Source of the DNA: Moringa oleifera
Taxonomy: Eukaryota > Streptophyta > Magnoliopsida > Brassicales > Moringaceae
Reading direction: 5' to 3'
Length of the DNA stretch: 64,000 nt
NCBI GenBank assembly: GCA_021397835.1
Contig: JAJFZO010000047.1
Coordinates: 190,001-254,000 of the forward strand
Below, piece by piece: positions 5,195-38,904 of the stretch. The notes beneath the pieces were generated by a model that saw only the letters and a list, made by a program, of their open reading frames with translations, did not search any database and had not been told where the DNA came from. The first letter of the stretch is position 1, and each line of letters starts with the position of its first letter. A program made the translations under genes and the position numbers.

Positions 5195-5365
5195 AATTTT
5201 CTACAGCCGAAAATTGAAAAAATCATCAAAAATAGCTCGTGAGTCAAAATGATCCCAAACTTCAGGGGCAGACTCCTCATGAATTACGCAAATTATTTCA
5301 GTCATTTTGGGGTAAATTCCATGATGAAAAGATGATCAATTCACAACAATTTCACAACTGGGCAT

Positions 5366-5640
5366 TGCGCCCTGCAGGCTGGGGCTGCTGTGCCTCTGCC
5401 TGGCCCATGGTGCATGCTGGCTGCCCTGTCCAGCGCACATCCAGCCACCCCATGGCAGCCCTCAGGGTCCACCAGAGCCAGGGACCACGGCCAAGGCCAG
5501 CTTGCCCATGAAATCAACGCCCACAGCATGCATTGAGCCTCACAGCGTGCTCGCGGCTGGCTCGCGTGGGGCGCCCCTGGAAAGGCTGGCATCGTGCCTG
5601 CTGGTGACTGCTGTAGCACCCCTGGCTCTCACGCTGGGAA
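5366..5640. repeat. Degenerate edge of the 182-bp array
   Basis: GC-rich sequence with recognisable but scrambled pieces of the 182-bp unit (for example gctggctcgcg at ~5560) and no regular period. Decayed units at the end of an array are expected because unequal exchange homogenises the middle and not the edges. Confidence 0.7.
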
Positions 5641-11600: not shown

Positions 11601-13900
11601 TGCCCAGGGTCCGTGAGATGCGGCCCCCCTGGCTCGCTCGCTGGGCACTACGTCGAGGGCCAGGGACGTTGGGGCTGGCTCGCGATTGGCGCCCGTGGCC
11701 TGGCTGGCCTTGGCCGTGGCTGCCGCATGCTGGGAGAGCAGCCCATGCTGTGCCTGCTTGGGCTTGCCTGGGCGTGCCACCCGTTCCCAGGGTCCATGCG
11801 ACGCGGCCCCCCTGGCTAACACGCTGGGCAGTCAGTCGAGGGGCAGGGACATGGGGGCTGGCTCGCGTTGGGCGCCCGCGGCCTGGCTGGCGTGCCCACC
11901 GCTGCCGCACGCTGGGCGAGCAGCCCATGCCGTGCCTGCTGGGGGTTGCCTGGGTGTGCCACCCATGCCCAGGGTCCATGAGATGCGCCCCCCCTGGCTC
12001 GCTCGCCAGGCACTACGTCGAGGGACAGGTACGTGGGGGCTGGCTCGCGATGGGCTCCCGCGGTCTGGCTGGTGCGCCCACCGCTGCCGCACGCGGGGTG
12101 AGATGCCCATGCCATGCCTTCTGGTGGCTGCCTTGGCGTGCCAACCATGCCCAGAGACTGTGCAACGCGGCTCCCCTGGCTCGCACGCTGGGCAGTCAGT
12201 CGAGGGGCAGGGACATGGGGGCTGGCTCGCGATGGGCGTCCATGGCCTGGCTGGCGCGCCCACCACTGTCGCACGCTGGGTGAACAGCCCATGCCGTGCC
12301 TGCTGGGGGATACCTGGGCATGCCACCCCTGCCCAGGATCTGTTCGACGCGGCCCCCCTGGCTCGCTTGCTGGGCACTACGTCGAGGGACAGGGACGTGG
12401 GGGCTGGCTCGCGATGGGCGCCCGTGGCCTGGCTGGCGCGCCCACCGCTGCCACACGTTGGGCGAGCAGCCAATGCTGTGCCTGCTGGGGGCTACCTTGG
12501 CATGCCACCCGTGCCCAGGGTCCATGCAACGCGGCCCCCCTGGTTCACTCGCTGGGCACTACGTTGAGGGACAGGTGCGTGGGGGCTGGCTCGTGATGGG
12601 CGCCCGCGGCCTGGCTGGCCCGCCCACCTCTACCGCACGCTGGGTGAGCAGCCCTTGCCGTACCTGCTGGGGGCTGCCTGGGCGTGCCAACCATCCCCAG
12701 GGTCCATGCGACGCGGCCCCCCTGGCTCGCTCGCCGGGCACTACGTCGAGGGACAGGTACGTGGGGGCTGGCTCACGATGGGCGACCGCGGCCTGGCTGG
12801 TGCGCCCACTACTGCCACACGCTGGGTGAGCAGCCAATGCTTTGCCTGCTGGGGGCTACCTGGGTGTGCCAGCCATGCCCAGAGTCCATGCGACGTGGCC
12901 CCCCTGGCTCGCTCGCCGGGCACTACATCGAGGGACAGGTACGTGGGGGCTGGCTCACGATGGGCGCCCGCGGCCTGGCTGGCGCGCCCACCGCTGCCAC
13001 ACGTTTGGCGAGCAGCCCATGCCATGCTTGCTGGGGGCTGGCTGGGCATGCCACCCATTCCCAGGGTCCGTGCAATGTGGCCCCCCTGGTTCACTCGCTG
13101 GGCACTACATTGAGGGACAGGTGCTTGGGGGCTGGCTCGTGATGGGCACCCGCAGCCTGGCTGGCGCACCCACCTCTGCCGCATGCTGGGCGAGCAGCCC
13201 TTTCCTTGCCTGCTGGGGGGTGCCTAGGTGTGCCAACCGTGCCCAGGGTCCATGCGACGCGGCCCCCCTGGCTCGCTCACCGGGTACTACGTTGAGGGAC
13301 AGGTGCGTGGGGGCTGGCTCGTGATGGGCGACCGCGGCCTGGCTGGCGCACCCACCGCTGCCACACGTTGGGCGAGCAGCCAATGCTGTACCTGCTGGGG
13401 GCTGCCTGGGCGTGCCACCCGTGCCCAGGGTCCATGCAACGCAGCCCCCCTGGTTCACTTGCTGGGCAGTACGTTGAGGGACAGGTGCATGGGGCCTGGC
13501 TCGCGATGGGCACCCGCGGCCTGGCTGGTGCGCCCACCTCTGCCACACGCTGGGCGAGCAGCCCTTGCCGTGCCTGCTGAGGGCTACCTGGGTGTGCCAC
13601 CCGTGCCCAGAGTCCATGCGACGCGGCCCCCCTGGCTCGCTCGCTGGGCACTACGTCGAGGGACAGGTACGTGGGAGCTGGCTCGCAATGGGCGCCCGCG
13701 GCCTGGCTGGCGCGCCCACCGCTGTTGCACACTGGGCGAGCAGCCCATGCCGTGCCTGCTTCTGGCTTCCAGGTCATGCAACCCTTCCCAGGGTCCATGC
13801 GACGTGGCAACCCAGGCTGGCACGCTGGGCAGTCAGTAGAGGGGCAGCGACGAGGGGGCCAGCTCGCGATGGGCGCCCGTGGCCTGGCTTGCGCAGCTAC
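5640..13900. repeat. 182-bp repeat, A and B families (partly alternating dimers)
   Basis: Here the units carry gcgagcagcccatgcc and gcatgccaccc, with either the A end (cactacgtcgag) or the B end (cagtcagtcgag). Between about 7.8 and 12.2 kb, A and B mostly alternate, giving a ~364-bp dimer. A variant block ccttggccgtgg replaces the usual cgcgcccacc at 5883, 7157, 7885, 8613, 9341, 9897, 10979 and 11708. Several of these spacings are 728-729 bp, exactly four units. From about 12.37 to 13.7 kb only A-type units occur, many with caggtacgtgg or caggtgcgtgg, a locally homogenised run. Confidence 0.85.
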
Positions 13901-16900
13901 CACTGCCGCACGCTTGGCACTTGGCCCATGCCGTGCCAGCTGAAGGACTGCTGGGGCATGCCTCCCATGCCCAGAGTCCGTGCGACGCGGCACCCCTGGC
14001 TTGCACACTGGGCAGTCAGTCGAGGATCAGGGACGAGGGGGCTGGCTCGCGATGGACGCCCGCACCCTGGCTAGCGCACCCACCGCTGCCGCACACTGGG
14101 AGAGCAGCCCATGCCGCGCCTGCTGGGGGCTGCCTGGGCGTGCCACCCATGCCAATGGTCCATGCGACTCGGCCCCCCTGGCTCGCTCGCTGGGCACTTA
14201 GTTGAGGAAGAGGGACGAGGGGGCTTGCTCGCAATGGGCGCCCACGGCCTGGCTGGCACGCCCACTTCTGCCGCATGCTGGGTGAGCAGCCAATGCCATG
14301 CCTGCTGGGGGTTTCCTGGGCGTGCCACCTGTGCCCAGGGTCCATGCGACATGGCCCCCTTGGCTCGCTCGCTTGGCACTTAGTTGAGGGACAGGGACGA
14401 GGGGGCTGGCTCGCGATCGGCACCTGTGGCCTGGCTGGTGCGCCCTCCTCTGCCGCACGCTGGTCACTTGGCCCATGCTGTGCCTTCTGGGGGCTGCCAG
14501 GGCATGCTTCCTGTGCCCAGGGTCCATGCGACGCGGCTCTCATGACTTGCTCGCTGGAAAACTAAATCGAGGGACAGGGACGAGGGGGCTGGCTCGCGAT
14601 GGGCGCCCGTGGCCTGGCTGGCGCGCCCACTGCTGCTGCACACTGGGGCCTTGGCCCATGCCATGCCTGCTGGGGGCTGCCTGTACATGCCTCCCGGGCA
14701 CAGGGTCCATGCAACGTGGCTCCCCTGGCTCGCTCACTGGGCACTTAGTCGAGGGACAGGGACGAGGGGGCTGGCTCGCGATGGGCGACTGTGGCCTGGC
14801 TGGCGCGCCCACCTCTGCCGCATGCCGGGCACTTGGCCCATGCCGTGCCTGCCGGGGGCTGCCTGGGCATGCCTCCCATGCCCAGGGTCCGTGCGACGCG
14901 GCTCCCCTGGCTCGGTCGCTGTGCACCAAGTCGAGCGACAGGGATGAGGGGGCTGGCTCACGATGGGCGACCGTGGCCTGGCTTGCGCACCCACCCCTGC
15001 TGCACGCTGGGCACTTGACCCATGCTGTGCCAGCTGGGGCATGCCTCCCGTGCCCATGGTCCATGCGACGCGGCTCCCCTGGCTCACTCGCTGGGCACTA
15101 AGTTGAGGGACAGGGACGAGGGGGCTGGCTCGCAATGGGCGCCCGTGGCCTGGCTGGCGCGCCCACCACTGCTGCACGATGGGCACTTGGCCCATACCAT
15201 GCCTGCTGGGGGCTGCCTGGGCATGCCTCTCATTACCAGGTTCCATGCGACACGGCTCCCCTGGCTCGCTCACCTGGCACTTTGTCGAGGGACAGGGACA
15301 ACGGGGCTTGCTCACGATGGGCGCCTGTGACCTGGCTGGCGATCCCACCTATGCCACACGCTGGGCACTTGGCCCATGCCATCCATGCTGGGGGCTGCCT
15401 GGGCATGCCTCCCGTGCCCAGGGCCCATGCGACGCGGCTCCCCTGGCTCGCTCGTTGGGCACTAAGTCGAGGGACAGGGACGAGGGGGCTGGCTCATGAT
15501 GGGCGCCCGAGGCCTCGCTGGCGCGCCCGCCGCTGCCGCACGTTGGGCACTTGGCCCATGCTGTGCCTGCTGGGGGCTGCCTTGGCATGCCTCCTGTGCC
15601 CAGGGTCCATACGACGCGGCTCCCCTGTCTCGCTAGCTGGGCACTTTGTCGAGGGACAGGGACGAGGGGGCTGGCTCACGATGGGCGCCCGTGGACTGGC
15701 TGGCGCGCCCACTGCTGCCACACGCTGGGCACTTGGCCCATGCCGTGCCTGCTGGGGGCTGCCTGGGCATGCCTCCCATGCCCAGGGGCCGTGCGATGCG
15801 GCTCCCCTGGCTCGCTTGCTGGCCACTTAGTCGAGGCACAGGGACGAGGGGGCTGGCTCGCAATGGGCGCCTGTGGCCTGGCTTGCGCGCCATCCTCTGC
15901 CGCGCGCTGGGCACTTGGCCCATGCTGTGCCTGCTGGGGGCTGCCTGGGCATGCCTCCCATGCCCAGTGTCCGTGCGACGCGGCTCCCCTGGCTCGCTCG
16001 CTGGGCACTATGTCGAGGGACACCGACGAGGGGGCTGGCTCGTGATGGCGCCCGTGGCCTCGCTGGTGCGCCCGCCGCTGCGACATGCTGGGCAGTTGAC
16101 CCATGCCATTCCTGCTGGGGGCTGCCTGGGCATGCCTCCTGTGCCCAGGGTCTGTGTGACGCGGCTCCCCTGGCTCATTCTCTGGGCACATAATCGTGGG
16201 ACAGGAGTGAGGGGGTTGGCTCGCGATGGGCGCCTGTAGCCTGGCTGGCGCGCCCACTGCTGCCACACGCTGGGCACTTGGCCCATGCCATGCCTGATGG
16301 GGGCTTCCTGGGCATGCCTCCCATGCCCAGGGTCCATGCGACGCGGCATCCCTGGCTCGCACGCTGGGCAGTCAGTCGAGGGGCAGGAACGAGGGGGCTG
16401 GCTCGCGATGGGCGCCCGTGGCCTGGCTAGCGCGCCCACCGCTGCCGCACGCTGGGCGAGCAGCCCATGCAGTGCCTGCTGGGGGCTGCCTGGGCGTGCC
16501 ACCCATGCCAGGGTCTGTGGGATGCCCCTGGCTCGCTCGCGATGGGCGCCCGCGGCCTGGCTGGCGCGCCCTTCTCTGCTGCACGCTAGGCACTCGGCCC
16601 ATGCTGTGCCTGCTGGGGGCTGCCTGGGCATGCTTCCCATGCCCAGGGTGCATGCAACGCGGCTCCTCTGGCTTGGTCACTGGACGCCAAGTCGAGGGAC
16701 AGGGACGAGGGGGCTGGCTCGCAATGGGCGCCCGTGGCCTGGCTGGCGCACCCACCACTGCCGCACGCTTGGAACTTGACCCATGCCGTGCTAGCTGGGG
16801 GGCCGCTGGGGCATGCCTCCTGTGCTCAGGGTCCATGCGACGCGGCTCACCTGGCTCGCTCGCTGGGCACTAAGTCGAGGGACAGGGACGAGAGGGCTTG

Positions 16901-19900
16901 CTTGCGATGGGCGCCGGTGGCCTGGCTGGCGCGCCCTCCGCTGCAGCACGCTGGGCACTTGGCCCATGCCATGCCTGCTTGGGGCTGCTGCGGCATGCCT
17001 CCCGTGCCCTGGGTCCATGCGACGCAGCTCCCCTGGCTCACTCGCAGGGAACTTTGTCGAGGGACAGGGACGAGGGGCTGGCTTGCGATGCGCGCCTGTG
17101 GCCTGGCTGGCGCGCCCACTTCTGCCGCACGCTGGGAACTTGGCCCATGCCGTACCTGCTTGGGGCTTCCTAGGCATGCCTCCCGTGCCCAGAGTCCATG
17201 CGACGCAGCTCCCCTGGCTCGTTCGCTGGGTACTCAGTCGAGGGACAGGGACGAGGGGGCTGGCTCGCGATGGGCGCCCGTGGCCTTGCTGGCGCGCCCA
17301 CCACTACCGCACATTGGGCACTTGGCCCATGCGGTACCTGCTGGGGGCTATCTGGGCATGCCTCCCGTGCCCAGGGTCCATGGACGCGGCTCCCCTGGCT
17401 CGCTCTCTGGGCACTAAGTCGAGGGACAGGGACGAGGGGGCTGGCTCGCGATGGGCGACCGTGGCCTGGCTGGTGCGCCTACCTTTGCCGCATGCTGGGC
17501 ACTTGGCCCACGCCATGCCAGCTGGGGAGCTGCTGGGGCATGCCTCCCGTGCTGAGGGTCCATGCAACGCGGCTCCCCTGGCTCGCTCACTGGGCACTAA
17601 GTCGAGGGACAGGGACGAGGGGGCTGGCTCGCGATGGGCGCCCGTGGCCTGGCTGGCGCGCCCACCTCTGCCGCACGCTGGGCACTTAGCCCATGCCATG
17701 CCTGCTGGGGGCTGCCTGGGCATGCCTCCCGTGCCCAGGGTCCATGCGACACGGCTCCCCTGGCTCGGTCGCTGGGCACCAAGTCGAGGGACAGGGACGA
17801 GGGGGCTGGCACGCGATGGGCGACCGTGGCCTGGCTTGCGCACCCACCGCTGCCGCACGTTGGGCACTTGGCCCATGCTGTGCCAGCTGGGGGGCTGCAG
17901 GGGCATGCCTCCCATGCCCATGGTGCATGCGACGCGGCTCCCCTGGCTCGCTTGCTGGGTACTAAGTTGAGGGACAGGGACGACGGGCCTGGCTCGCAAT
18001 GGGCGCCCGTGGCCTGGCTGGTGCGCCCTCCGCTGCTGCACGATGGGCACTTGGCCCATGCCATGCCTGCTTGAGGTTGCCTGGGCATGCCTCTCATTCC
18101 CAGGGTCCGTGCGACACAGCTCCCCTGGCTCACTCGCCTGGCACTTTGTCGAGGGACAGGGACGACGGGGCTTGCTCACGATGGGCGCCTGTGACCTGGC
18201 TGGCGCTCCCACCTCTGCCACACGCTGGGCACTTGGCCCATGCCATCCGTGCTGGGGGCTGCCTGGGCATGCCTCCCGTGCCCAGGGCCCATGCGACGCG
18301 GCTCCCCTGGCTCGCTCACTGGGCACTAAGTCGAGGGACAGGGACGAGGGGGCTGGCTCATGATGGGCGCCCGAGGCCTCACTGGCGCGCCCGCCGCTGC
18401 TGCACGTTGGGCACTTGGCCCATGCTGTGCCTGCTGGGGGCTGCCTGGGCATGCCTCCTGTGCCCAGGGTCCATACGACGCGGCTCTCCTGTCTCGCTAG
18501 CTGGGCACTTTGTCGAGGGACAGGGACGAGGGGGCTGGCTCATGATGGGCGCCCATGGACTGGCTGGTGCGCCCACTGCTGCCGCAAGCTGGGAACTTGG
18601 CCCATGCCGTGCCTGCTGGGGGCTGCCTGGGCATGCCTCCCATGCCCAGGGTCCATGCAACGTGGCTCCCCTGGCTCACTTGCTGGGCACTTAGTCGAGG
18701 GACAGGGACGAGGGGGCTGGCTCGCAATGGGTGCCTGTGGCCTGGCTTGCGCGCCATCCTCTGCTGCACGCTGGGAACTTGGCCCATGCCGTGCCTGCTG
18801 GGGGCTGCCTGGGCATGCCTCCCATGTGCAGAGTCCACATCACGCGGCTACCCTGGCTCGCTCGCAGGGAACTTAGTCAAGGGACAGGGACGAGGGGGCT
18901 CGCTCGCTATGGGCGCCCGTGGCCTGGCTGGCGCGGCCAATGCTGCAGCACACTGGGCACTTGGCCCATGCCGTGCCTGCTGGGGGCTGCCTGGTCAAGC
19001 CTCCCATGCCAGGGTCCATGTGACGCGGCTCCCCTGGCTCGCTCGCTGGGCACTAAGTCGAGGGACAGGGACGAGGGGGCTGGCTCGCGATGGGCGCCCG
19101 TGGCCTGGCTGGCACGCCCAACACTGCCACACGCTGGGCACTTGGCCCATGCCATGCCTGCTGCGGGCTGCCTTGGCATGCCTCCCATGCCCAGGCTCTG
19201 TGCGACACAGCTCCCCTGGCTCGCTCGCTGGGCACTTAGTGGAGGGACAGCGACAAGTGGGCTGGCTCGAAATGGGCACCTGTGGCCTGGCTGGCACGCC
19301 CTCTTCTGCCGCACGCTGGGCACTTGGCCCATGCCGTGCCTGCTGGGGGCTGCCTGGGCATGCCTCCCGTGCCCAGAGTCCATGCGACACGGCTCCCCTG
19401 GCTCGCTCACTGGGCACTAAGTTGAGGGACAGGGACGAGGGGGCTGGCTCGTGATGGGCACCTGTGGCCTCGCTGGCGCACCCACCGCTGCCGCACGCTG
19501 TGCATGCCTCCCGTGCCCAGGGTCTGTGCGATGCAGCTCCCCTGGCTCGTTCGCTGGGAACTTAGTCGAGGGACAGGGACAAGGGGGCTGGCTCAAGATG
19601 GGCGCCCGTGGCCTGGCTGGCGCGCCCACTGCTGCTGCACGCTGGGCAGTTGGCCCATGCCATGCCTGCTGGGGGCTGCTGGGGCATGCCTCCCATGCCC
19701 AGGGTCCATGCGATGCAGCTCCCCTGGCTCGCTCGCTGGGCACTTAGTGAAGGGACAGGGACGAGGGGGCTAGCTCGCGATGGGCGCCTGTGGCCTGGCT
19801 GGCGCGCCCTCCTCTGCCGCACGCTGTGCACTTGGCCCATGCCGTGCCTGCTGGGGGCTGCCTGGGATTGCCTTCCATGCCCAGAGTCCCTGTGACATGG

Positions 19901-20868
19901 CTCCCCTGGCTCACTCGCTGGGCACTAAGTCAAGGGATAGGGAGGACGGGGCTGGCTCGTGATGGGCGTCCGTGGCCTCGCTGGCGAGCCCACCGCTGCC
20001 GCACGCTGGGCATTTGGCCCATGCCGTGCCTGCTGCATGCTGCCTGGGCATGCCTCCCATGCCCAGCCTCCGTGCGATGCGGCTCCCCTGGCTCGCTCGC
20101 TGGGCACTTAGTCGAGGGACAGGGACGAGGGGCCTTGCTCACAATGGGCGCCTGTGGCCTGGCTGGCACGCCCTCCTCTGCCGCACTTTGGGCACTTGGC
20201 CCATACCGTGCCTGCTGGGGGCTGCCTGGGCATGCCTCCCGTGCCTATATTCCATGTGATGTGGCTCCCCTGGCTCGCTCACTGGGCACTAAGTCGAGGG
20301 ACAGGGACGAGGGGGCTGGCTCGTGGTGGGCGCCTGTGGCCTCGCTGGCGCGCCCACCGCTGCCGCATGCTGGGCATTTGGCCCATGCCGTGCCTGCTGG
20401 GGGCTTCCTGGGCATGCCTCCCGTGCCCAGTGTCTGTGCGACGTGGCTCCCTTGGCTCGTTCACTGGGCACTTAGTCAAGGGACAGGGACGAGGGGGCTG
20501 GCTCGTGATGGGCGCCTGTGGCCTGGCTGGCGCGCCAACCTCTGCCGCACGCTGGGCACTTGGTCCATGCCGTGCCTACTGGGGGCTTCCTGGGCATGCC
20601 TTCTGTACCCAGGGTCCGTGTGACGTGGCTCCCCTTGCTCACTCGCTGTGCACTAAGTCAAGGGACAGGGACGAGGGGGCTGGCTCGCGATGGGCGCCCG
20701 TGGCCTGGCTGGCGCACCCACTGCTGCCGCACGCTGGGCACTTGGCCCATGCCATGCCTGCTGTGGGGCTGCTGGGGCATGCCTCCTGTGCCGAGGGTCC
20801 ATGTGACGCGGCTCCCCAGGCTCGCTCATTGGGCAGTACTTTACCGAGGGACAGCATCGAGGGACAAG
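13900..20868. repeat. 182-bp repeat, C family (25S-proximal)
   Basis: Units here have cacttggcccatgcc in place of gcgagcagcccatgcc, gcatgcctccc in place of gcatgccaccc, and an end reading gcacttagtcgag or gcactaagtcgag followed by gacgagggggctgg. The switch from A/B is mosaic between about 13.9 and 14.5 kb. One unit near 19445-19589 is ~38 bp short. This family lies nearest the 25S end of the spacer. Confidence 0.85.
16340..16545. repeat. A/B-type island inside the C-family block, with a 48-bp deletion
   Basis: Within the C block, one stretch reverts to B/A signatures: cagtcagtcgag near 16370, gcgagcagcccatgc near 16455 and gcgtgccaccc near 16495. The following unit is ~48 bp short: the gctcgcga elements at 16401 and 16535 are 134 bp apart rather than 182. 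This looks like a conversion or exchange tract from the A/B block, more than 2 kb away. Confidence 0.7.
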
Positions 20869-20901
20869 TTTTTGTTAGATATATGTATTTTTTATTGCAG
20901 T

Positions 20902-20944
20902 AACACTTGGTTCTCCAATGCTTCCCGATATGTTTCCAAGTGTT
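20902..20944. terminator. 9-bp inverted repeat downstream of 25S; possible processing or termination hairpin
   Basis: aacacttgg (20902-20910) and ccaagtgtt (20936-20944) are perfect complements separated by 25 nt. The site lies about 155-195 bp past the 25S 3' end. A T-run follows on the plus strand, which is an A-run on the rRNA strand. Plant Pol I terminators are poorly defined, so this is a structural candidate only. Confidence 0.25.
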
Positions 20945-21080
20945 TTTTTCTTGTGTTTCTCATTCTCTACAAGCCCAAAGGACTTGTTTCTTTCTCCAAG
21001 CCATTATCTTGAGGGACCGTTTCTGACCTCGTGGCATCAATTTTCGAAAAGAGAGGGACAATTGTTTTGGGGGTTCAGGA

Positions 21081-21096
21081 GGGGGGGGGGGGAGGG
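21081..21096 (-). other. C-tract immediately after the 25S 3' end
   Basis: The plus strand shows twelve Gs (21081-21092), then AGGG. In the rRNA sense this is CCCT followed by a C12 run directly after the 25S end. Pyrimidine-rich CCCTCCCC sequence is common just past the plant 25S 3' end, which supports the boundary placed here. Long homopolymers are prone to length error. Confidence 0.6.
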
Positions 21097-21097
21097 A

Positions 21098-21496
21098 CGA
21101 ATCGTAGCGACAAAGGGCTGAATCTCAGTGGATCGTGGCAGCAAGGCCACTCTGCCACTTACAATACCCCGTCGCGTATTTAAGTCATCTGCAAATGATT
21201 CTACCCATCGCTCGGTGGGAATCACTCTTCAAGGCAGCCCGCGAGGCTCCGCCGCCACGTGAGCTTGGCCAACGACACGTGCTTTTGGGGGCTTGGAGGC
21301 CCCTACTACAGGTCGGCAATTGGGCAACGGGCGCATGCATCGCTTCTAGCCTGAGTTCTGTCTTAGAGGCGTTCAGTCATAATCCAGCGCATGGTAGCTT
21401 CGCGCCACTGGCTTTTCAACCAAACGCGATGACCAATTGTGCGAATCAACGGTTCCTCTCGTACTAGGTTGAATTACTATCGCGACGCGGGCATCG

Positions 21497-21549
<53 letters not shown>

Positions 21550-21584
21550 ATTGGTGGGTGAACAATCCAACACTTGGTGAATTC

Positions 21585-21629
<45 letters not shown>

Positions 21630-21652
21630 AACGTCCCTATGAATGCTTGGCT

Positions 21653-21695
<43 letters not shown>

Positions 21696-21815
21696 AGCTT
21701 CAAATTCCGAAGGTCTACAGGATTAATAGGCCACGCTTTCATGGTTCATATTCGTACTGGAAATCAGAATCAAACGAGCTTTTGCCCTTTTGTTCCACAC
21801 GATATTTCTGTTCTC
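21098..21815 (-). rRNA. 25S ribosomal RNA, 3' terminal fragment (~718 nt)
   Basis: The minus strand matches the 3' end of plant 25S (large-subunit) rRNA without large gaps. It includes the sarcin-ricin loop AGTACGAGAGGAACC (complement of 21451-21465), the block around AGAATTCACCAAGTGTTGG (complement of ~21570-21588), and the terminal ...GGCAGAGTGGCCTTGCTGCC region near 21135-21155. The 3' end is placed near 21098 by the conserved TTTGTCGCTACGATTCG and the following C-tract. It carries transitions at CpG relative to the usual sequence, for example cacggttcg read as catggttca near 21740 and gaacgc read as gaatgc near 21640. It is joined at its upstream end to 18S. It is a fragment of a non-functional unit. 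Confidence 0.96.
21451..21465 (-). other. Sarcin-ricin loop of 25S rRNA
   Basis: The complement of 21451-21465 reads AGTACGAGAGGAACC, the universally conserved loop of large-subunit rRNA that contacts elongation factors. It is intact here although the surrounding gene is deleted. Confidence 0.95.
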
Positions 21816-22214
21816 AGGCTCCCTCTCCGGAATCGAACCCTAATTCTCCGTCACCCGTCACCACCATAGTAGGCAACTATCCTACCATCAAAAGTTGATA
21901 AGGCAGAAATTTGAATGATGCGTCGCCGGCACGATGGCCTTGCGATCCGTCGAGTTATCATGAATCATCAGAGCAACGAGCGAAGCCCGCGTCGACCTTT
22001 TATCTAATAAATGCACCCTTTCCAGAAGTCAGGGTTTGTTGCACGTATTAGCTCTAGAATTACTACGGTTATCCGAGTAGTAGGTACCATCAAACAAACT
22101 ATAACTGATTTAATGAGCCATTCATAGTTTCACAGTCTGAATTAGTTCATATTTACACATGCATGGCTTAATCTTTGAGATAAGCATATGACTACTGGCA
22201 GGATCAACCAGGTA
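21811..22214 (-). rRNA. 18S ribosomal RNA, 5' fragment (~400 nt)
   Basis: The minus strand begins TACCTGGTTGATCCTGCCAG at 22214 and follows plant 18S for ~400 nt, ending at GGAGCCTGAGAA where it meets 25S. It is the same length as the matching part of the copy at 412-810 (399 nt, no indels), but about 24 bases differ. This copy keeps standard bases at many sites changed in the other (for example CATCAAACAAAC near 22088). It has its own changes, such as ttcatag for ttcgcag near 22127. Both copies have therefore diverged independently. Confidence 0.95.
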
Positions 22215-22791
22215 GCATCCTTCGAGACGCCGCGCCAATTAAGACCGAAGCATGCCGTAAGGCTCGCTAAGGCCAAAGCTGTCGCAGTCGTCGTTCAAAA
22301 TCGATGGGACGTGGGACAAATGCTTTCGCTTGGATAGGCTGAGGTTGAGGCCACTCCTGTCGCAATACTTTTTGCACCCGAGGGGACAACCGATCTCTCG
22401 TGTGCCAAAGCAGCCACATGCCAAAGCAAGCCGCGCTTGGAGCACGAGGCTCGACTTAGGTTTCCACCCATGCCCACGAGGGACATGGTGGAAAGACAAC
22501 CGACTCGAATCATCAAATTCCATTTGTGAAGGCACGCGACATAAGGTCCCGATGTCACCCATAAAATGCCAACGTATGGCTCGGGGTTGAGCTTGAAGCG
22601 ACGTGCTAGTTGACAGTTCGATGTGAGAGCATGAAGCCTGCCAACGCGCATGACTAGATCACCACTCACACATCGCACGTACAAATGGGCAGCAACAGCA
22701 CCAAACGAGCTGCAAGCCAACAAGCGAAAGGCCCATCGATCATGCAGGTCATCGTGCGCCACCACACCCATGCCGCTAAGCGCAAAATTGT
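22215..22791 (-). other. 5' external transcribed spacer (ETS), copy 2
   Basis: Homologous along its whole length to 811-1388 and equally placed between an 18S 5' end and the 317-bp repeats. Shared landmarks are the caaaatcgatgggacgtggg block (near 22300) and tcaaattccatttgtgaagg (near 22512). Differences are scattered substitutions and a few small indels. No gene is seen. Confidence 0.75.
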
Positions 22792-22833
22792 TTCAATATC
22801 AAGGGACGATTCTTCAATGGCAAGGGACCACCA
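22780..22833 (-). promoter_or_regulatory. Candidate rRNA gene promoter region, duplicated 15-bp motif (copy 2)
   Basis: ttcaatatcaaggga (22792-22806) and ttcaatggcaaggga (22813-22827) repeat the arrangement seen at 1389-1424 with the same 21-bp offset and the same distance (~578 bp) to the 18S start. Repeat sequence starts directly after. Conservation between two diverged spacers supports a functional site, at least in the ancestral unit. Confidence 0.4.
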
Positions 22834-25660
22834 ATGAGGCCTTTGCAGCAGGGGTCTCAAAATGTGCCTAGGCTGGCCGTGTGGCTCGCTCGTTGCTAAC
22901 GATCGACGATCGTGTCGTCGATCACGTTGTGCAACAAGTCCGCTTCCAGGCAAGCCTGAGCGTCGAGATCCAACCCTGCGTTCACCACCTCGAGGGCCTG
23001 CGACAAAGCACTTCGCGTGCTCAAAATCCCCCCAACGGTTTAGCCCTCACGTAGCATGCATCATCGTTAACTTCGCCGCCCACACCATCGAGCTTGTCCA
23101 GCCACATCCTAGCTCATTATCCCATGATTATTCTCGCTTAGTTTCCCACGTTTTTCCCACCGATGAGGCCTTGGCAGTAGGGGTGTCACAACGTGCCCAG
23201 GCTGGCCGTGTGGCTCGCTCGTTGGTAACGGTCGACGATCGTGTCGTCGATCGCGCTGCACAACAAGTCCGCCTAAGCAAGCCTGAGCGTCGAGATCCAA
23301 CCCCACGTCTGCCGCCTCGAGGGCCTGCGACGAAGCACTCCGCATGCTCGAAATCCCCCTAACAATTTGGCCCTCACGTAGCATGCATCATCGTTAGCTT
23401 CGCCGCACACACCATCGAGCTTGTCTAGCAACATCCCAGCTCATTATCCCACAATTATTCTCGCTTCGTTGCCCATGTTTTTCCCACCGATGAGGCCTTG
23501 GCAGCAGGGGTGCCAAGGCTGGCCGTGTCACTCGCTCATTGCTGATGGCCGACGATTGTGTCGTTGATCGCGCGGCGCAACGAGTCCGTCGAGGCAAGCC
23601 TGAGCGTCGAGATCCAACCCCACGTCTGCCGCCTCAAGGGCTTGTGACGAAGCACTACGCATGCTCGAAATCCCCCCAACGATTTGGCCCTCACGTAGCA
23701 TGCATCATCGTTAGCTTCGCCACCCACACCATCGAGCTTGTCTAGCCATATCCCAGCTCATTATCACATGATTATTCTCGCTTTGTTGCCCACGTTTTTC
23801 GTACCAATGAGGCCTTGGCAGCAGGGGTGCCCAGGCTAGCCGTGTGGCTCGCTCGTTGCTAACGGTCGACGATTGTGTCGTCGATCACACTGCGCAACGA
23901 GTCCGCCTAGGCAAGCCTGAGCGTTGAGATCCAACCCCACATCTGCCGCCTCGAGGGCCTGCGATGAAGCACTCCGCATGCTCGATATCCCTCCAACGAT
24001 TTGGCCTTCGCGTAGCATGCATCATCGTTAGCTTCGCCGCCCAGACCATCGAGCTTGTCTAGCCACAACCCAGCTCATTATCCCACGATTATTCTCGCTT
24101 CGTTGCCCACGTTTTTCGTACCAATGAGGCCTTGGCAGCAGGGGTGCCCAGGCTAGCCGTCTGGCTCGCTCGTTGCTAACGGTCGACGATCATGTCGTCG
24201 ATCGCGCTGCGCAACGAGTTCGCCTAGGCAAGCCTGAGCGTCGAGATCCAACCCCACGTCTGCCGCCTCAAGGGCCTACGACGAAGCACTTCGCATGCTC
24301 GATATCCCTCCAACGATTTGGCCTTCGCGTAGCATGCATCATCGTTAGCTTCGTCGCCCACACCATCAAGCTTGTCTAGCCACATCCCTGCTCATTATCC
24401 CATGATTATTCTCGCTTCGTTGCCCACGTTTTTCGTACCAATGAGGCCTTGGCAGCAGGGGTGCCCAGGCTAGCCGTGTGGCTTGCTCGTTGCTAACGGA
24501 CGACGATAGAGTCATCGACCATGCTGCACAACGAGTCCACCTTGGCAAGCCTGAGCGTCGAGATCAAACCCCACGTCTGCCGCCTCGAGGGCCTGCGATG
24601 AAGCGCTCCGCATGCTCGAAATCCCCCCAATAGTTTGGCCCTCACGTAGCATGCATCATTGTTTGCTTCACAGCCCACACCATCGAGCTTGTCTAGCCAC
24701 ATCCCAGCTCATTATCCCACGATTATTCTCGCTTCATTGCCCACGTTTTTCGCACTATTGAGGCCTTGGCAGTAGGGGTACCCAGGCTGGCCGTATGGCT
24801 CGCTCGTTGCTAACAGACGGCAATAGTGTCATCGATCACAATGCACAACGAGTCCACCTAGGCAAGCCTGAGCGTCGAGATCAAACCCCACATCTGTCGC
24901 CTCGAGGGCCTGCGATGAAGTACTCCGCATGCTCGAAATCCCACCAACAATTTGGCCCTCACGGAGCATGCATCATTGTTTGCTTCGCAAACCATTCCAT
25001 CGAGCTTGTCTAGCCATATCCCAGCTCATTATCCCACGATTATTCTTGCTTCGTAGCCCACATTTTTCCCACCAGCGAGGCCTTGGCAGTAGGGGCACCC
25101 AGGCTGGCCGTGTGGCTCGCTCGTTGCTAACGGCCAACGATCGTGTCGTCGATCGCGCTGCGTAATGAGTCCGCCTAGGCAAGCCTGAGCGTCGAGATCC
25201 AACCCAACGTTTGCTGCCTCGAGGGCCTACGATGAAGCACTCCGCATGCTCGAAATCCCCCCAACGATTTGGCCCTCACGTAGCATGCATCATCGTTAGC
25301 TTCGCTACCCACACCATCGAGCTTGTCTAGCCACATCCCAGCTCATTATCCCACGATTATTCTCCCTTCGTTGCCCACGTTTTTCCCACCGATGAGGCCT
25401 TGGCAGTAGGGGTGCCCAAGCTGGCCGTGTGGCTCGCTCGCTCCTAACAGCCGACGATAGTGTCATCGATCACGCTGCCCAATGAGTCCACCTAGGCAAG
25501 CATAAGCATCGAGATCCATCCCCACGTCTGCTAACTCGACGGCTTACGATGAAGCACTCCGCATGCTCGAAATCCCCCCAACATTTTGGCCCTAACATAG
25601 CATGCATCATGGTTTGCTTCGCCGCCCACAACATCGAGCTAGTCTAGCCACATCCCAGTT
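22828..25660. repeat. Promoter-proximal zone of array 2
   Basis: These first ~9 units resemble array 1 most closely (gcatgctcgaaatcc, gttgctaacgg). The first two carry the tcacaacgtgcc-type ~11-bp insertion (near 22855 and 23185) that is otherwise seen only in array 1. The unit order next to the promoter is thus partly shared between the two spacers. Confidence 0.7.
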
Positions 25661-26279
25661 CATTATCCTACGATTATTCTCGCTTCGTTGCCCACGTTTT
25701 TCCAACCGATGAGGCCTTGGCAGCAGGGGTGCCTAGGCTGGCCGTGTGGCTCGCTCGTTGCTAATGGCCGACGATCTTGTCGTCGATCGCGCTGCGCAAC
25801 GAGTCCGCCTAGGCAAGCATGGGCGTCGAGATCCAATCCCACGTCTGCCGCCCCGACGGCCTGCGAAGAAGCACTCCGCATTCTCGAAATCCCCCCAATG
25901 ATTTAGCCCTCGCGTAGCATGCATCATCGTGAGCTTCGCCGCCCACACCATCGAGCTTGTCTAGCCATATCCCAGCACATTATCCCACGATTATTCTCGC
26001 TTCGTTGTCCACGTTTTTCCCACCAATGAGGCCTTGGCAGTAGGGGTGCCGAGGCTGGCTGTGTGGCTCGCACGTTTCTAACGGCCGACGATCGCATCGT
26101 CGATCGCGCTGCGCAACGAGTCCGCCTAGGCAGCATGGGCGTCGAGATCCACCCCACGTCTGCCGCCCCGACGGCCTGCGAAGAAGCACTCCCGCATTCT
26201 CGAAATCCCCCCAATGATTTGCCCTCGCGTAGCATGCATCATGTGAGCTTCGCCGCCCACACCATCGAGCTTGTCTAGC

Positions 26280-28850
26280 CATATCCCAGCTCATTATCCC
26301 ACGATTATTCTCGCTTCGTTGCCCACGTTTTTCCCACCGATGAGGCCTTGGCAGTAGGGGTGCCGAGGCTGGCCGTGTGGCTCGTTCGTTTCTAACGGCC
26401 AACGATCGTGTCGTCGATCACGCTGCGCAATGAGACCGCCTAGGCAAGCATGAGCGTCGAGATCCAACCCCACGTCTGTCGCCCCAAGGGCCTGCGACAA
26501 AGCACTCCGCATGCTCGAATCCCCCCCAACAATTTGGCCCTCACGTAGCATGCATCATCGTTAGCTTCGCCGTCCACTCCATCGATCTTGTCTGGCCACA
26601 TCCCAGCTCATTATCCCACGATTATTCTCGCTTCATTGCCCACGTTTTTTCCCACTGATGAGGCCTTGGCAGGAGGGGTGGCAAGGCTGGCTGTGTGGCT
26701 CACTCGTTGTTAACGGGCGACGATAGTGCCATCGATCACGCTGCACAATGAGTCCACCTCGGCAAGCCTGAGCGTCGAGAACAAACCCCACGTCTGCCGC
26801 CTCGAGGGCCCTACGAAGAAGCACGCCGCATTCTCGAAATCCCCCCAACGATTTGGCCCTCGCGTAGCATGCATCATCGTGAGCTTCGCCGCCCACACCA
26901 TCGATCTTGTCTAGCCATATCCCAGCTCATTATCCCACGATTATTCTCGCTTCGTTGCCCACGTTTTTTCCCACTGATGAGGCCTTGGCAGTAGGGGTGC
27001 CCAAGCTGGCCGTGTGGCTCGCTCGTTGCTAAAGGCCGACGATCGTGTCGTCGATCGCGCTACGCAACGAGTCTGCCTAGGCAAACATGAGCGTCGAGAT
27101 CAAACCCCACGTCTGCCCCCTCGAGGGCCTGCGATGAAGCACTCCGCAGTCTCGAAATCCCCCCAACGATTTGGCCCTCGCGTAGCATGCATCATCGTGA
27201 GCTTCGTCACCCACACCATCAAGCTTGTCTAGCCATATCCCAGCTCATTATCCCACGATTATTCTCGCTTCGTTGCCCACGTTTTTCCCACCAATGAGGC
27301 CTTGGCAGTAGGGGTGCCGAGGCTGGCCGTGTGGCTCGCTCGTTTCTAACGGCCAGCGATCGTGTCGCCGATCGCGCTGCGCAACGAGTCCGCCTAGGCA
27401 AGCATGGGCGTCGAGATCCAACCCCACGTCTGCCGCCCCGACGGCCTATGAAGAAGCACGCCGCATTCTCGAAATCCCCCCAATGATTTGGCCCTCGCGT
27501 AGCATGTATCATCGTGAGCTTCGCCGCCCACACCGTCGAGCTTGTCTACCCATATCCCAGCTCACTATCCCACGATTATTCTCGCTTCGTTGCCCACGTT
27601 TTTCCCACCAATAAGGCCTCGGCAGTAGGGGTGCCGAGGTTGGCCGTGTGGCTCGCTCGTTTCTAACGGCCGACGATCGTGTCGTCAATCGCGCCGCGCA
27701 ACGAGTCCGCCTTGGCAAGCATGGGCGTCGAGATCCAACCCCACGTCTGCCGCCCCGAGGGCCTGCGAAGAAGCACTCCGCAATCTCCAAATCCCCCCAA
27801 CGATTGAGCCCTCGTGTAGCATGCATCATCGTGAGCTTCGTCGCCCACACCATCGAGCTTGTCTAGCCATATCCCAGCTCATTATCCCATGATTATTCTC
27901 ACTTCGTTGCCCATGTTTTTCCCACCGATGAGGCCTTGGCAGTAGGGGTGCCGAGGCTGGCCCTGTGGCTCGCTCGTTTCTAACGGCCAACGATCGTGTC
28001 GTCGATCGCGCTGCGAAATGAGTCCGCCTAGGCAAGCATGAGCGTCGAGATCCAACCCCACGTCTGTCACCCCAAGGGCCTGCGACGAAGCACTCCGCAT
28101 GCTCGAATCCCCCCCAACAATTTGGCCCTCACGTAGCATGCATCATTGTTAGCTTCACCGCCCACACCATCGATCTTGTCTGGCCACATCCCAGCTCATT
28201 ATCCCATGATTATTCTCGCTTCGTTGCCCACGTTTTTTCCCACTGATGAGGCCTTGGCAGGAGGGGTGGCAAGGCTGGCCGTGTGGCTCACTCGTTGTTA
28301 ACGGGCGACGATAGTGTCATCGATCACGCTGCACAATGAGTCCACCTCGGCAAGCCTGAGCGTCGAGAACAAACCCCAAGTCTGCCGCCTCGAGGGCCCT
28401 ACGAAGAAACACGCCGCATTCTCGAAATTCCCTCAACGATTTGGCCCTCGCGTAGCATGCATCATCGTGAGCTTCGCCGCCCACACCATCGATCTTGTCT
28501 AGCCACATCCCAGCTCATTATCCCATGATTATTCTCGTTTCGTTGCCCACATTTTTTCCCACTGATGAGGCCTTGGCAGTAGGGGTGCCCAAGCTGGCCG
28601 TGTGGCTCGCTCGTTGCTAAAGGCCGATGATCGTGTCGTCGATCGCGCTGCGCAACGAGTCTGCCTAGGCAAGCATGAGCGTCGAGATCAAACCCCACGT
28701 CTGCCGCCTTGAGGGCCTGCGATGAAGCACTCCGCATTCTCGAAATCCCCCCAACGATTTGGCCCTCGCGTAGCATGCATCATCGTGAGCTTCACCGCCC
28801 ACACCATCAAGCTTGTCTAGCCATATCCCAGGTCATTATCCCACGATTAT
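26280..28850. repeat. Five-unit higher-order repeat (1588 bp), two copies
   Basis: The stretch from about 26.29 to 27.2 kb matches the stretch from about 27.88 to 28.8 kb at an offset of 1588 bp, with shared rare variants such as a gtcgagaacaaacc block (26775 and 28363) and cccccccaac (about 26520 and 28108). The offset equals five 317-bp units plus three bases. Confidence 0.65.
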
Positions 28851-31439
28851 TCTCGCTTCGTTGCCCACGTTTTTTCCCACTGATGAGGCCTTGGCAGGAG
28901 GGGTGGCAAGGCTGGCCGTGTTGCTCACTCGCTGTTAACGGGCAACGACAGTGTCATCGATCACGCTGCACAATGAGTCCACCTCGACAAGCCTGAGCGT
29001 CGAGATCAAACCCCACGTCTGCCGCCTCGAGGGCCCTACGAAGAAGCACTCCGCATTCTCGTAATCCCCCCAACGATTTGGCCCTCACGTAGCATGCATC
29101 ATCGTGAGCTTCGTCGCCCACACCATCGAGCTTGTCTAGCCATATCCCAGCTCATTATCCCACGATTATTCTCGCTTTGTTGCCCAAGTTTTTCACACAG
29201 ATGAGACCTTAGCAGTAGGGGTGCCGAGGCTGGCTGTGTGGCTCGCTCGTTTCTAATGGCGAACGATCGTGTCATCGATCGCGCTGCGCAACGAGTCCAC
29301 CTAGGCAGGCATGAGCGTCGAGATCAAACCACACGTCTGCCGCCTCGAGGGCCCTACGAAGAAGCACTCCGTATTCTCGAAATCCTCCCAACGATTTGGC
29401 CCTCGAGTAGCATTCATCATCGTGAGCTTCGCCGCCCACACCATCGAGCATGTCTAGCCATATCCCAGCTCATTATCCCATGATTATTCTCGCTTCGTTG
29501 CCCACGTTTTTTCCACATATGAGACCTTGGCAGTAGGGGTGCCGAGGCTGGCTGTGTGGCTCGCTCGTTTCTAACGGCCAACGATCGTGTCGTCGATCGC
29601 ACTGCGCAACGAGTCCGCCTAGGCAAGCATGAGCGTAGAGATCCAACCACACGTCTGTCGCCCGAAGGTCCTGCGACGAAGCACTCCACATGCTCGAAAT
29701 CCCCCCAACAATTTGGCCCTCACAAAGCATGCATCATCGTTAGCTTCGCTGGCCACACCATCGAGCTTGTCTGGCCACATTCCAGCTCATTATCCCACGA
29801 TTATTCTCGCTTCATTGCCCACGTTTTTTCCAACTGATGAGGCCTTGGCAGGAGGGGTGGCAAGGCTGGCTGTGTGGCTCACTCGTTGTTAACGGGCGAC
29901 GATAGTGTCATCGATCACGCTCCACAAGGAGTCCACCTCGGCAAGCCTGAGCTTTGAGGTCAAACCCCACGTCTGCCGCCTCGAGGGCCCTGCGAAGAAG
30001 CACTCCGCATTCTCGAAATCCCCCAAACGATTTGGCCCTCGTGTAGCATGCATCATCGTGAGCTTCGCCGCCCACGCCATCGAGCTTGTCTAGCCATATC
30101 CCAGCTCATTATCCCATGATTATTCTCGCTTCGTTGCCCACGTTTTTCCCACAGATGAGACCTTGGCAGTAGGGGTGCCGAGGCTGGCTGTGTGGCTCGT
30201 TCGTTTCTAACGGCGAACGATCGTGTCGTCAATCGTGCTGCGCAACGAGTCCGCCTAGGCAAGCATGAGCGTCGAGATCCAACCCCACGTCTGTTGCCCC
30301 GAGGGCCTACGACAAAGCACTCCGCATGCTCGAAATCCCCCCAAAAATTTGGTCCTCACATAGCATGCATCATCGTTAGCTTCGTCGCCCACACCATCGA
30401 GCTTGTCTAGCCACACCCCAGCTCATTATCCCACGATTATTCTCGCTTTGTTGCCCACGTTTTTTCCCACTGATGAGGCCTTGGCAGTAGGGGTGCCCCG
30501 GTTGGCCGTGTGGCTCGCTCGTTGCTATAGGCCGACGATCGTGTCGTCGATCGCGCTGCGCAACGAGTTCGCCTAGGGAAGCGAGAGCATCGAGATCAAA
30601 CCCCACGTCTGCTGCCTCGAGGGCCTACGATGAAGCACTCCGCATTCTCGAAATCCCCCCAACGATTTGGCCCTCGCGTAGCATGCATCATCGTGAGCTT
30701 CGCCGCCCACACCATCGAACTTGTCTAGCCATATCCCAGCTCATTATCTCACGATTATTCTCACTTCGTTGCCCACGTTTTTCCCACCAATGAGGCCTCG
30801 GCAGTAGGGGTGCCGAGGCTGGCCGTGTGGCTCGCTCGTTTCTAATGGCCAACGATCGTGTTGTCGATCGCGCTGCGCAATGAGTCCGCCTAGGCAAGCA
30901 TGGGCGTCGAGATCCAACCCCACGTCTGCCGCCCTGAGGGCCTGCAAAGAAGCACTCCGCAATCTCAAAATCCCCCCAACGATTTAGCCCTCGCGTAGCA
31001 TGCATCATTGTGAGCTTCGCCGCCCACACCATCGAGCTTGTCTAGCCATATCCCAGCTCATTATCCCTTGATTATTCTCACTTCGTTGCCCACGTTTTTT
31101 CCCACTGATGAGGCCTTGGCAGGAGGGGTGGCAAGGCTGGCCGTGTGGCTCACTCGTTGTTAACGGGCGACGATAGTGTCATCGATCACGTTGCACAATG
31201 AGTCCACCTCGGCAAGCCTGAGCGTCGAGATCAAACCCCACGTCTGCCGCCTCGAGGGCCCAACAAAGAAGCACTCCGCATTCTCGAAATCCCCCCAACG
31301 ATTTGGCCCTCGCGTAGCATGCATCATCATGAGCTTCGCCGCCCACACCATCGATCTTGTCTAGCCACATCTCAACTCATTATGCCACGATTATTCTCGC
31401 TTCGTTGCCCATGTTTTTTCCCACGGATGAGGCCTTGGC

Positions 31440-37000: not shown

Positions 37001-38904
37001 AAATCCCCCCAACAATTTGGCCCTCACGTAGCATGCGTCATGGTTTGCTTCGCCACCCACAACATCGAGCTAGTCTAGCCACATCCCAGCTCATTATCCC
37101 ACGATTATTCTCAGTTCGTTGCCCATGTTTTTCCCACCGATGAGGCCTTGGCTGTAGGGGTGCCAAGGCTGGCCGTGTGGCTCGCTCGTTGCTAACGGCT
37201 GACGATTGTGTTGTCGATCGTACTGTGCAACGAGTCCACCTAGGCAAGCATAAGCGTCGAGATCAAACCCCACGTCTGTAGCCTCGAGGGCCTGGGATGA
37301 AGCACTCCGCATTCTCGAAATCCCCCCAATGATTTGGCCCTCGCGTAGCATGCATCATCGTTAGCTTCGTCGCCCACACTATCGAGCTTGTCTAGCCACC
37401 TCCTAGCTAATTATCCCATGATTATTCTCACTTTGTTGCCCATGTTTTTCCCACCGATGAGGCCTTGGCAGTAGGGGTGCCCAGGCTGGCCGTGTGGCTC
37501 GCTCATTGCTAACAGCAGACGATAGTGTCATCGATCACACTGCCCAACGACTCCACTTAGGCAACCATGAGCGTCGAGATCCAACCCCACGTCTGCTGCT
37601 TCGAGGGCCTGCGATGAAGCACTCCGCATGCTCGAAATCCCCCCAACAATTTGGCCCTCACGTAGCATGCGTCATGGTTTGCTTCGCCGCCCACAACATC
37701 GAGCTAGTCTAGCCACATCCCAGCTCATTATCCAACTATTATTCTCGCTTCGTTGCCCACGTTTTTTCCCACTGATGAGCCCTTGGCAGTAGGGGTGCCA
37801 AGGCTGGCCGTGTGGCTCGCTCGTTTCTAACGGCTGACGATTGTGTTGTCGATCGCACTGCGCAATGAGTTTGCCTAGGCAAGCATGAGCGTCGAGATCA
37901 AACCCCACGTCTGTCGCCTCGAGGGCCTGCGATGAAGCACTCCGCATTCTCGAAATACCCCCAACAATTTGGCCCTCGTGTAGCATGCATCATCGAGAGC
38001 TTCGCCGCCTACACCATCGAGCTTGTCTAGCCATATCCCAGCTCATTATTCCACGATTATTCTCGCTTCATTGCCCACGTTTTTCCCACCAATGAGGCCT
38101 TGGCAGTAGGGGTGCCAAGGCTGGCCGTGTGGCTCGCTCGTTGCTAACGGCTGACGATTGTGTTATCGACCGCACTGCGCAATGAGTCCGCCTAGGCAAG
38201 CATGAACGTCGAGATCAAACCCCATGTCTGTCGCCTCGAGGGCCTGCGATGAAGCACTCCGCATTCTCGAAATCCTGCCAAAGATTTGGCCCTCGCGTAG
38301 CATGCATCATCGTTAGCTTCGCCGCCCACACTATCGCGGTTGTCTAGCCACATCCCAGCTCATTATCCCACGATTATTCTCACTTCGTTGCCTACATTTT
38401 TCCCATCGATGAGGCCTTGGCAGCAGGGGTGCCCAGGCTGGCTGTGTGGCTCGCTCATTGCGAAAGGCTGACGATCGTGTTGTCGATCGCACTGCGCAAC
38501 GAGTTCATGTAGGCCAGCCTGAGCGTCGAGATCCAACACTACGTCTGCCGGCTCGAGGGCCTACGATGAAGCACTTCGCATGCTCGAAATCCCGCCAATG
38601 ATTTGGCCATCACGTAGCATGCATCATCGTTAGCTTCGCCCCCCACACCATCAAGCTTGTCTAGCCACATCCCAGCTCATTATCGCACGATTATTCTTGC
38701 TTCGTTGCCCACGTTTTTCCCACCGATGAGGCCTTGGCACCAGGGGTGCCCAGGCTGGCCGTGTTGCTCGCTCGTTGCTAACGGCCGACGATCGCGTCGT
38801 CGATCGCACTGCGCAACGAGTCCGCCAAGGCAAGCATGAGCGTCGAGATCAAACCCCACGTCTGTTGCCTCGAGGGCCTGCGATGAAGCACTCTGCATTC
38901 TCGA

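What the first reader, a model, noticed from the sequence alone, without database searches (positions are those of the whole stretch)
21098..22214. An rDNA unit collapsed to an 18S 5' end fused to a 25S 3' end
18S nt 1 to ~400 are joined to the last ~715 nt of 25S at TTCTC (21811-21815), a 5-bp microhomology shared by both genes, with proper ETS and 25S-proximal spacer on the two sides. A single internal deletion by end joining explains this. The unit keeps its spacer and promoter region and could still be transcribed as a short chimeric RNA.
Basis: partly seen in the sequence, partly recalled or inferred. Interest (0 to 1): 0.75.

Follow-up and report, generated by a model that had tools for sequence, protein, structure and literature searches.

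The report
Fused dead ribosomal RNA gene relic
A plant ribosomal RNA gene unit lost its middle, leaving the start of one rRNA gene joined to the end of another, and the same broken unit is found at four places in a genome that holds many other broken copies.

Summary
In detail: on the minus strand, 18S nt 1-404 is joined to the last 713 nt of 25S across TTCTC, with normal flanks. It is very unlikely to be a read or assembly chimera: the exact join lies at four places (C655, C602, C223, C199), whose copies have since diverged. The join has 5 bp of microhomology; a random 18S-25S join reaches that with P about 0.005. The copies form two pairs, each sharing collinear flanking arrays, so one deletion was later copied. 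Base changes in the 18S part are all C>T/G>A; in the 25S part about half are. Genes diverge about as fast as spacers overall. 'Keeps its promoter' is not supported: the 61 kb read upstream is 317-bp repeat. The unit is one of many: 18S runs across this breakpoint at 469 places and 25S at 456. A second 18S-25S fusion (6-8 bp microhomology) matches at 68 places, three evenly spaced on one contig. Of 12 18S loci looked at, 8 have structural breaks.

The parts
22864..64000 (-). 317-bp spacer repeat array upstream of the fused unit; continues beyond the window to at least C655:274000 (61,137 bp in all, about 193 unit lengths)
   Evidence: TRF; blast map (195 repeat hits); 61,117 of 61,137 bp covered
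22215..22863 (-). 18S-proximal 5' ETS of the fused unit
   Evidence: 91% identical to the ETS at 811-1460
21811..22214 (-). 18S rRNA nt 1-404
   Evidence: RF01960; 404-nt ungapped alignment, 94.6%, to the held 18S copies L044 and L046
21811..21815 (-). TTCTC (GAGAA on the gene strand): 5-bp microhomology shared by 18S and 25S at the join
   Evidence: exact join string at 4 places
21098..21810 (-). last 713 nt of 25S rRNA
   Evidence: RF02543 to model position 3399 of 3401; blast
20836..21097 (-). 25S-proximal 3' spacer
   Evidence: 94-99% identical in C602, C223, C199 and C655:167043
5619..20835 (-). 182-bp spacer repeat array downstream of the fused unit (83 repeat hits)
   Evidence: TRF
4925..5619 (-). 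unique spacer block, perhaps the promoter block of the next unit; holds CTTTAGGGGGGAGGTGG at 4996-5012, which resembles plant Pol I start sites (resemblance recalled, not tested)
   Evidence: pattern copied from this site; no other match in the window with up to 3 mismatches; 40 of 1926 first-look candidates scored, 40 matches at 92-100%
1461..4922 (-). 317-bp repeat array of the next unit (11 units)
   Evidence: TRF
811..1460 (-). 5' ETS of the next unit
1..810 (-). 18S nt 1-810 of the next unit, itself a diverged copy; runs off the window
   Evidence: RF01960; 32 of 809 sites differ from consensus

Best explanation
This is a dead 35S rDNA unit. A break in an rDNA array was repaired by joining ends at a 5-bp microhomology (alternative end joining or template switching). 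That removed 18S from nt 405, ITS1, 5.8S, ITS2 and about four fifths of 25S, roughly 4.7 kb if within one unit. The scarred unit stayed embedded in spacer arrays, lost most constraint, and decayed largely by C>T changes of the kind expected in methylated, silent DNA. It was copied as part of longer array segments (at least once; three times if the two close pairs are not alleles), giving four assembled copies. It is one instance of a process seen at many loci of this genome, in which broken rDNA units are kept and copied instead of being removed by homogenisation. Shown: the join, its four copies, their two-pair tree, collinear flanks, base-change bias, similar gene and spacer divergence, and other fusions. 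Inferred: repair pathway, methylation, silence, and the duplication mode.
For: Exact join at 4 places. Site patterns: 41 of 60 variable columns group C655+C602 against C223+C199, the other 19 are private changes, none conflict; the latter pair shares an extra 25S deletion. C655/C602 lie on one diagonal at mostly 97-100% per 500-bp piece from about -13.5 to +6.5 kb, with one-unit shifts near +3 to +4.5 kb (lowest 95%), and again at 99.6-99.8% at about -18.7 to -17.3 kb, while second-best positions are mostly 82-93% and at most 95.8%. C223/C199 are collinear at 99-100% from about -2.9 to +5 kb. 18S-part changes from consensus: 10, 6, 10 and 11 of 402 sites, all C>T/G>A. Divergence in genes against spacers: C655-C602 8/1117 vs 7/737; C655-C223 32/1045 vs 20/746; C223-C199 2/1045 vs 3/716. 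Microhomology 5 bp, P 0.005; nine gene-gene joins mean 3.0 against 0.68 expected, 0 of 200,000 resampled sets reach the sum; without the two 18S-25S fusions the other seven still reach it in only 233 of 200,000. Second fusion at 68 places, control 0.
Against: No reads, methylation data or RNA were available. The 25S part does not show C>T-only change: in the four copies 10 or 11 of 19-20 differences from an 11-row consensus are C>T/G>A, 5-7 are transversions and 3 are T>C/A>G. The ETS alone diverges somewhat faster than the genes between the pairs (20/486 vs 32/1045, P 0.29; 22/486 vs 26/1045, P 0.04), and the 3' spacer slower (0/260 for C655-C223), so some residual constraint or conversion is not excluded. 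Both consensuses include the four copies themselves. The nine joins come from loci fetched for other reasons, and two unclear joins were set to 0 by hand; joins to spacer repeats were looked at by eye only and not counted. Allelic copies cannot be told from duplications.
Confidence: 0.85

Rival explanations
1. Assembly or read chimera: the assembler or a chimeric read joined 18S to 25S in repetitive rDNA.
For: rDNA arrays are collapse-prone (general knowledge); no raw reads could be checked.
Against: The same join on 4 contigs with diverged flanks and later private mutations; an artefact would not inherit substitutions.
Confidence: 0.03
2. Non-homologous exchange between two different rDNA units (18S of one, 25S of another), not a deletion inside one unit.
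For: The product would be identical; a neighbouring unit exists.
Against: Nothing in the data favours it; it needs a longer deletion or an unequal exchange.
Confidence: 0.25
3. A transcribed, possibly functional chimeric rRNA gene.
For: 5' ETS and 3' spacer retained. The 61 kb upstream holds 137 overlapping matches to a loose A/T-then-G pattern, so a cryptic start is possible. The ETS diverges slightly faster than the genes between the pairs (P 0.04 to 0.29).
Against: No match to the promoter-like spacer block in the 61 kb upstream; genes and spacers diverge alike when pooled; C>T-only changes in the 18S part.
Confidence: 0.04
4. The copies were amplified because the shortened unit is itself a favoured repeat (satellite-like birth), as may be the case for the second fusion.
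For: The second fusion matches at 68 places, three of them on C544 on one strand and exactly 6,895 bp apart (the DNA between them was not read).
Against: The finding's own fusion has only 4 exact places, and its copies share long collinear flanks, so it moved as a passenger.
Confidence: 0.1

Closest known systems
35S/45S rDNA pseudogenes in plants and humans (Cycas revoluta about 50% of copies; human about 5%; as quoted in PMC10462631, passages seen)
   Same: Decayed rRNA gene copies that escape homogenisation and accumulate in the genome.
   Different: Here a defined 18S-25S fusion with microhomology is followed through four copies, and a second fusion is counted at 68 places.
End-joining scars in rDNA (model of Sims et al., PMC8580885, passages seen including parts of the abstract)
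   Same: Breaks in rDNA repaired by end joining, including microhomology-mediated joining, leaving insertions and deletions in units.
   Different: The passages seen stress short-range scars; here kilobase-scale deletions join different genes and are inherited by copying.
Pseudogenes amplified within rDNA units (5S in Gnetum and Ephedra, PMC6526317, passages seen including parts of the abstract)
   Same: A broken rRNA gene copied along with its array.
   Different: 5S there, a 35S internal fusion here.
Spacer-derived satellite DNA in plants (recalled, no call)
   Same: rDNA spacer repeats expanded into long arrays, as the 61-kb 317-bp array.
   Different: Here the array still abuts rRNA gene remnants.

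Membership tests
35S rDNA pseudogene | Clear homology to 18S/25S in unit order with spacers | tested here: met
35S rDNA pseudogene | Lesion incompatible with function | tested here: met
   1404 nt of 18S, ITS1-5.8S-ITS2 and 2678 nt of 25S missing
35S rDNA pseudogene | Relaxed constraint | tested here: met
   pooled gene and spacer divergence alike; caveat: ETS alone slightly faster than genes, P 0.04-0.29 between the pairs, and 3' spacer slower
35S rDNA pseudogene | Not transcribed or processed | not testable with these tools
   no RNA data; upstream stretch lacks the promoter-like block
Microhomology-mediated deletion | Short identity at the join beyond chance | tested here: met
   5 bp, P 0.005; nine joins mean 3.0 vs 0.68
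Microhomology-mediated deletion | Pathway (Pol theta or fork switching) shown | not testable with these tools
   needs genetics
Assembly artefact | Join unique to one contig and lacking inherited variants | tested here: not met
   4 contigs, diverged copies

The most novel reading that the evidence does not exclude
In this plant, homogenisation of 35S rDNA has largely failed. Units broken by microhomology joins are retained over long territories (25S relics listed from 4.46 to 7.43 Mb of contig C627), and some, such as the 68-place 18S-25S fusion that also carries a solo-LTR-like insert in 18S, have become repeat families of their own with at least one apparent head-to-tail array. rDNA is turning into satellite DNA through end-joining scars.
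Probability: 0.4. Interest if true: 0.62.

Novelty: new member of a known kind. Interest (0 to 1): 0.42.

Why it matters
rDNA pseudogenes are known, but the events that make them are rarely seen base by base with their later copies (my judgement, not a search result). Here the breakpoints, microhomologies and order of events can be read from the assembly. That makes the proposal that end joining scars rDNA directly testable, and shows that a broken unit can be copied instead of erased.

Tried and rejected
Assembly chimera: rejected on four diverged copies of the join. Linked 5S: none in the window at gathering score; 5S lies in separate arrays, often about 751 bp apart (47 matches scored of 6937 candidates). 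Textbook plant Pol I start motif (recalled) with one mismatch: 0 matches in the window, about 1 expected by chance. Clean functional unit as reference: not found among the loci I held. The best full-length 18S copies (L044, L046) differ from the consensus by 61 of 1806 and 77 of 1804 sites; L064's 25S has its own internal deletion; L063, whose place I had only estimated, shows no 25S. I cannot say the genome lacks functional units. A whole-genome 18S family search did not complete. The species was not identified; passages of two Aquilegia papers were seen and gave no ground for naming it. Papers on 18S-25S fusions: by titles and abstract starts, searches listed none that I recognised as describing one; this is not proof of absence from print.

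One search was run for this.

Full report
What is there. The window is 64 kb of a 275-kb contig (C655) of a 279.5-Mb assembly. The rDNA is of land-plant type (my reading of the 18S, 25S and ITS; recalled, no call). On the minus strand the order is: 317-bp array (64000-22864), 5' ETS (22863-22215), 18S nt 1-404 (22214-21811), join, 25S last 713 nt (21810-21098), 3' spacer (21097-20836), 182-bp array (20835-5619), unique spacer block (5619-4925), 317-bp array (4922-1461), 5' ETS (1460-811), 18S nt 1-810 (810-1) of the next unit. No 5S lies in the window at Rfam's gathering score; the 47 5S matches scored in the genome (of 6937 first-look candidates) lie on other contigs, many spaced about 751 bp apart.

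The join. Aligning both parents shows 18S ..GCCTGAGAA and 25S GAGAACAG.. sharing GAGAA (TTCTC on the plus strand), 5 bp. Of 15 other held 25S rows across the breakpoint, 12 read CAACGAGAA and 3 read CAATGAGAA (11 and 2 of 13 distinct loci), so the ancestral overlap is most likely 5 and possibly 6. Random joins of the same two genes give at least 5 bp with probability 0.0049. If within one unit, about 1404 nt of 18S, 587 nt of ITS1-5.8S-ITS2 (length taken from the C101 copy) and 2678 nt of 25S were lost.

It is real and has one origin. An 18-nt string across the join, allowing one mismatch, matches exactly at 4 places (C655, C602, C223, C199) and with one mismatch at 2 more, with 1 control match; those 2 loci show no rDNA. 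The four copies share the join but differ elsewhere: C223 and C199 share an extra 25S deletion of about 76 bp with 4 new bases, and a 317-bp repeat joined into the ETS that removed its outer part. Of 60 variable columns, 41 split C655+C602 from C223+C199, 19 are private to one copy, and none conflict. So the deletion came first and the copies followed.

How it was copied. C655 and C602 match on one diagonal from about -13.5 kb to +6.5 kb around the join, mostly at 97-100% per 500-bp piece; pieces near +3 to +4.5 kb shift by one repeat unit, the lowest at 95%. They match again at 99.6-99.8% on a diagonal shifted by 3.7 kb, at about -18.7 to -17.3 kb of C655, so C602 appears to have lost 3.7 kb, including the unique spacer block. 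Beyond +6.5 kb the order is lost. Second-best positions are mostly 82-93%, at most 95.8%. C223 and C199 are collinear at 99-100% from about -2.9 to +5 kb, with array-length changes further out. In the five comparisons made, the first eight 182-bp units next to the 3' spacer lie in the same order at 95-100%. The unit therefore moved as part of longer segments. Whether the pairs are alleles or duplicates cannot be told.

Condition. Against an 18-row consensus of 18S nt 1-404 (which includes these copies), the four differ at 10, 6, 10 and 11 of 402 sites, and every change is C>T or G>A. The 25S part is less clean: against an 11-row consensus the four differ at 19 or 20 of 564-716 sites, of which 10 or 11 are C>T/G>A, 5-7 transversions and 3 T>C/A>G. 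Among the four copies, 50 of 60 variable columns are transitions. Genes and pooled spacers diverge alike: C655-C602 8/1117 vs 7/737; C655-C223 32/1045 vs 20/746; C655-C199 32/1045 vs 20/716; C602-C223 26/1045 vs 25/735; C602-C199 26/1045 vs 24/705; C223-C199 2/1045 vs 3/716. Taken apart, the ETS is somewhat faster than the genes between the pairs (P 0.29 for C655-C223, 0.04 for C602-C223) and the 3' spacer slower for C655-C223 (0/260, P 0.001). Overall this is what nearly neutral, probably methylated DNA looks like; methylation was not measured.

Promoter. The unique block 4925-5619 carries CTTTAGGGGGGAGGTGG at 4996-5012 (minus); a search with that string finds no other match in the window with up to 3 mismatches. 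I read it as a plausible Pol I start by recalled resemblance only; a stricter recalled consensus found nothing. The block itself is common: the 40 candidates scored all match at 92-100% (of 1926 candidates). Upstream of the fused unit, 61,117 of the 61,137 bp to C655:274000 are 317-bp repeat, with no match to that block. The 317-bp repeats do hold short A/T runs followed by G runs (137 overlapping matches to a loose pattern), so a cryptic start is not excluded.

The wider picture. 18S continues across this breakpoint at 469 places (up to 2 mismatches, control 0) and 25S at 456 places (up to 3 mismatches, control 0); the places listed lie on many contigs and both strands. A second 18S-25S fusion (18S about nt 521 to 25S about nt 1382) is matched at 68 places (up to 3 mismatches, control 0), three of them on C544 on one strand 6,895 bp apart (the DNA between was not read). 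Its shared bases are 8 with L037 as the 25S parent, 6 with L064, 7 with a recalled plant form. The 12 loci of that family that I held by that search (L050-L061, of 68) show the fusion in the blast map, L056 with a further loss in 25S, and 12 of 12 carry an insert of about 1 kb in 18S (L061 only 223 bp of it), which in L060 has TG..CA ends and a CCTAC target duplication: a solo-LTR-like element. L039 has the insert without the fusion, so the insert probably came first. Of the first 12 listed loci with an exact 18S match (L038-L049; not a random sample, two partly masked), 8 show a structural break within 1.5 kb: deletions in 18S, 18S joined to ITS1 or to 182-bp repeats, 317-bp repeats joined into 18S, ETS losses. 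Nine gene-gene joins have microhomology 5, 7, 5, 2, 3, 2, 3, 0, 0 (mean 3.0; two unclear joins set to 0); the random mean is 0.68, and 0 of 200,000 resampled sets reach the sum. With 6 in place of 7 it is still 0 of 200,000, and the seven joins other than the two 18S-25S fusions reach their sum in 233 of 200,000.

Reading. Broken rDNA units here are made by microhomology joins, kept, and copied. Known parallels: about half of Cycas revoluta 45S copies and about 5% of human copies are pseudogenes (PMC10462631, passages seen); end joining is proposed as the common repair mode in Arabidopsis rDNA during meiosis (PMC8580885, passages seen); amplified 5S pseudogenes are reported in gnetophytes (PMC6526317, passages seen). 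The finding is a new, well-resolved member of a known kind. The unusual parts are the fusion of two genes, its traceable copies, and the second fusion at 68 places.

Noticed in passing
C627, C101, C463, C480, C544 and others; L050-L061: A second 18S-25S fusion with 6-8 bp microhomology matched at 68 places, three of them 6,895 bp apart on one strand of C544.
   Followed up: partly
L060:318-1337 and the 11 other loci of L050-L061; L039:455-1465: Insert of about 1020 bp in 18S near nt 346, with TG..CA ends and a CCTAC duplication in L060: solo-LTR-like; also present in L039, which lacks the fusion.
   Followed up: partly
window 22864-64000 and on to C655:274000: 61 kb of uninterrupted 317-bp spacer repeats (about 193 unit lengths) upstream of a dead unit, against 11 in the neighbouring unit.
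   Followed up: partly
L037 (C101): 317-bp repeat joined into 18S near nt 1414 (by eye), followed by 5.8S and a 25S that matches the whole Rfam model.
   Followed up: partly
window 20836-21097: 3' spacer without substitutions among C655, C223 and C199 (0 of 260) while the adjacent 25S part differs by about 3%: a possible short conversion tract.
   Followed up: no
C602 near 969906: C602 joins 182-bp to 317-bp repeats without the unique promoter-like block; against C655 this looks like a 3.7-kb deletion.
   Followed up: yes
C223/C199 copies, 25S part: The extra 25S deletion has 4 new bases at its join; by eye they extend to a 10-nt match with a nearby 25S stretch, as template switching would leave.
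   Followed up: no
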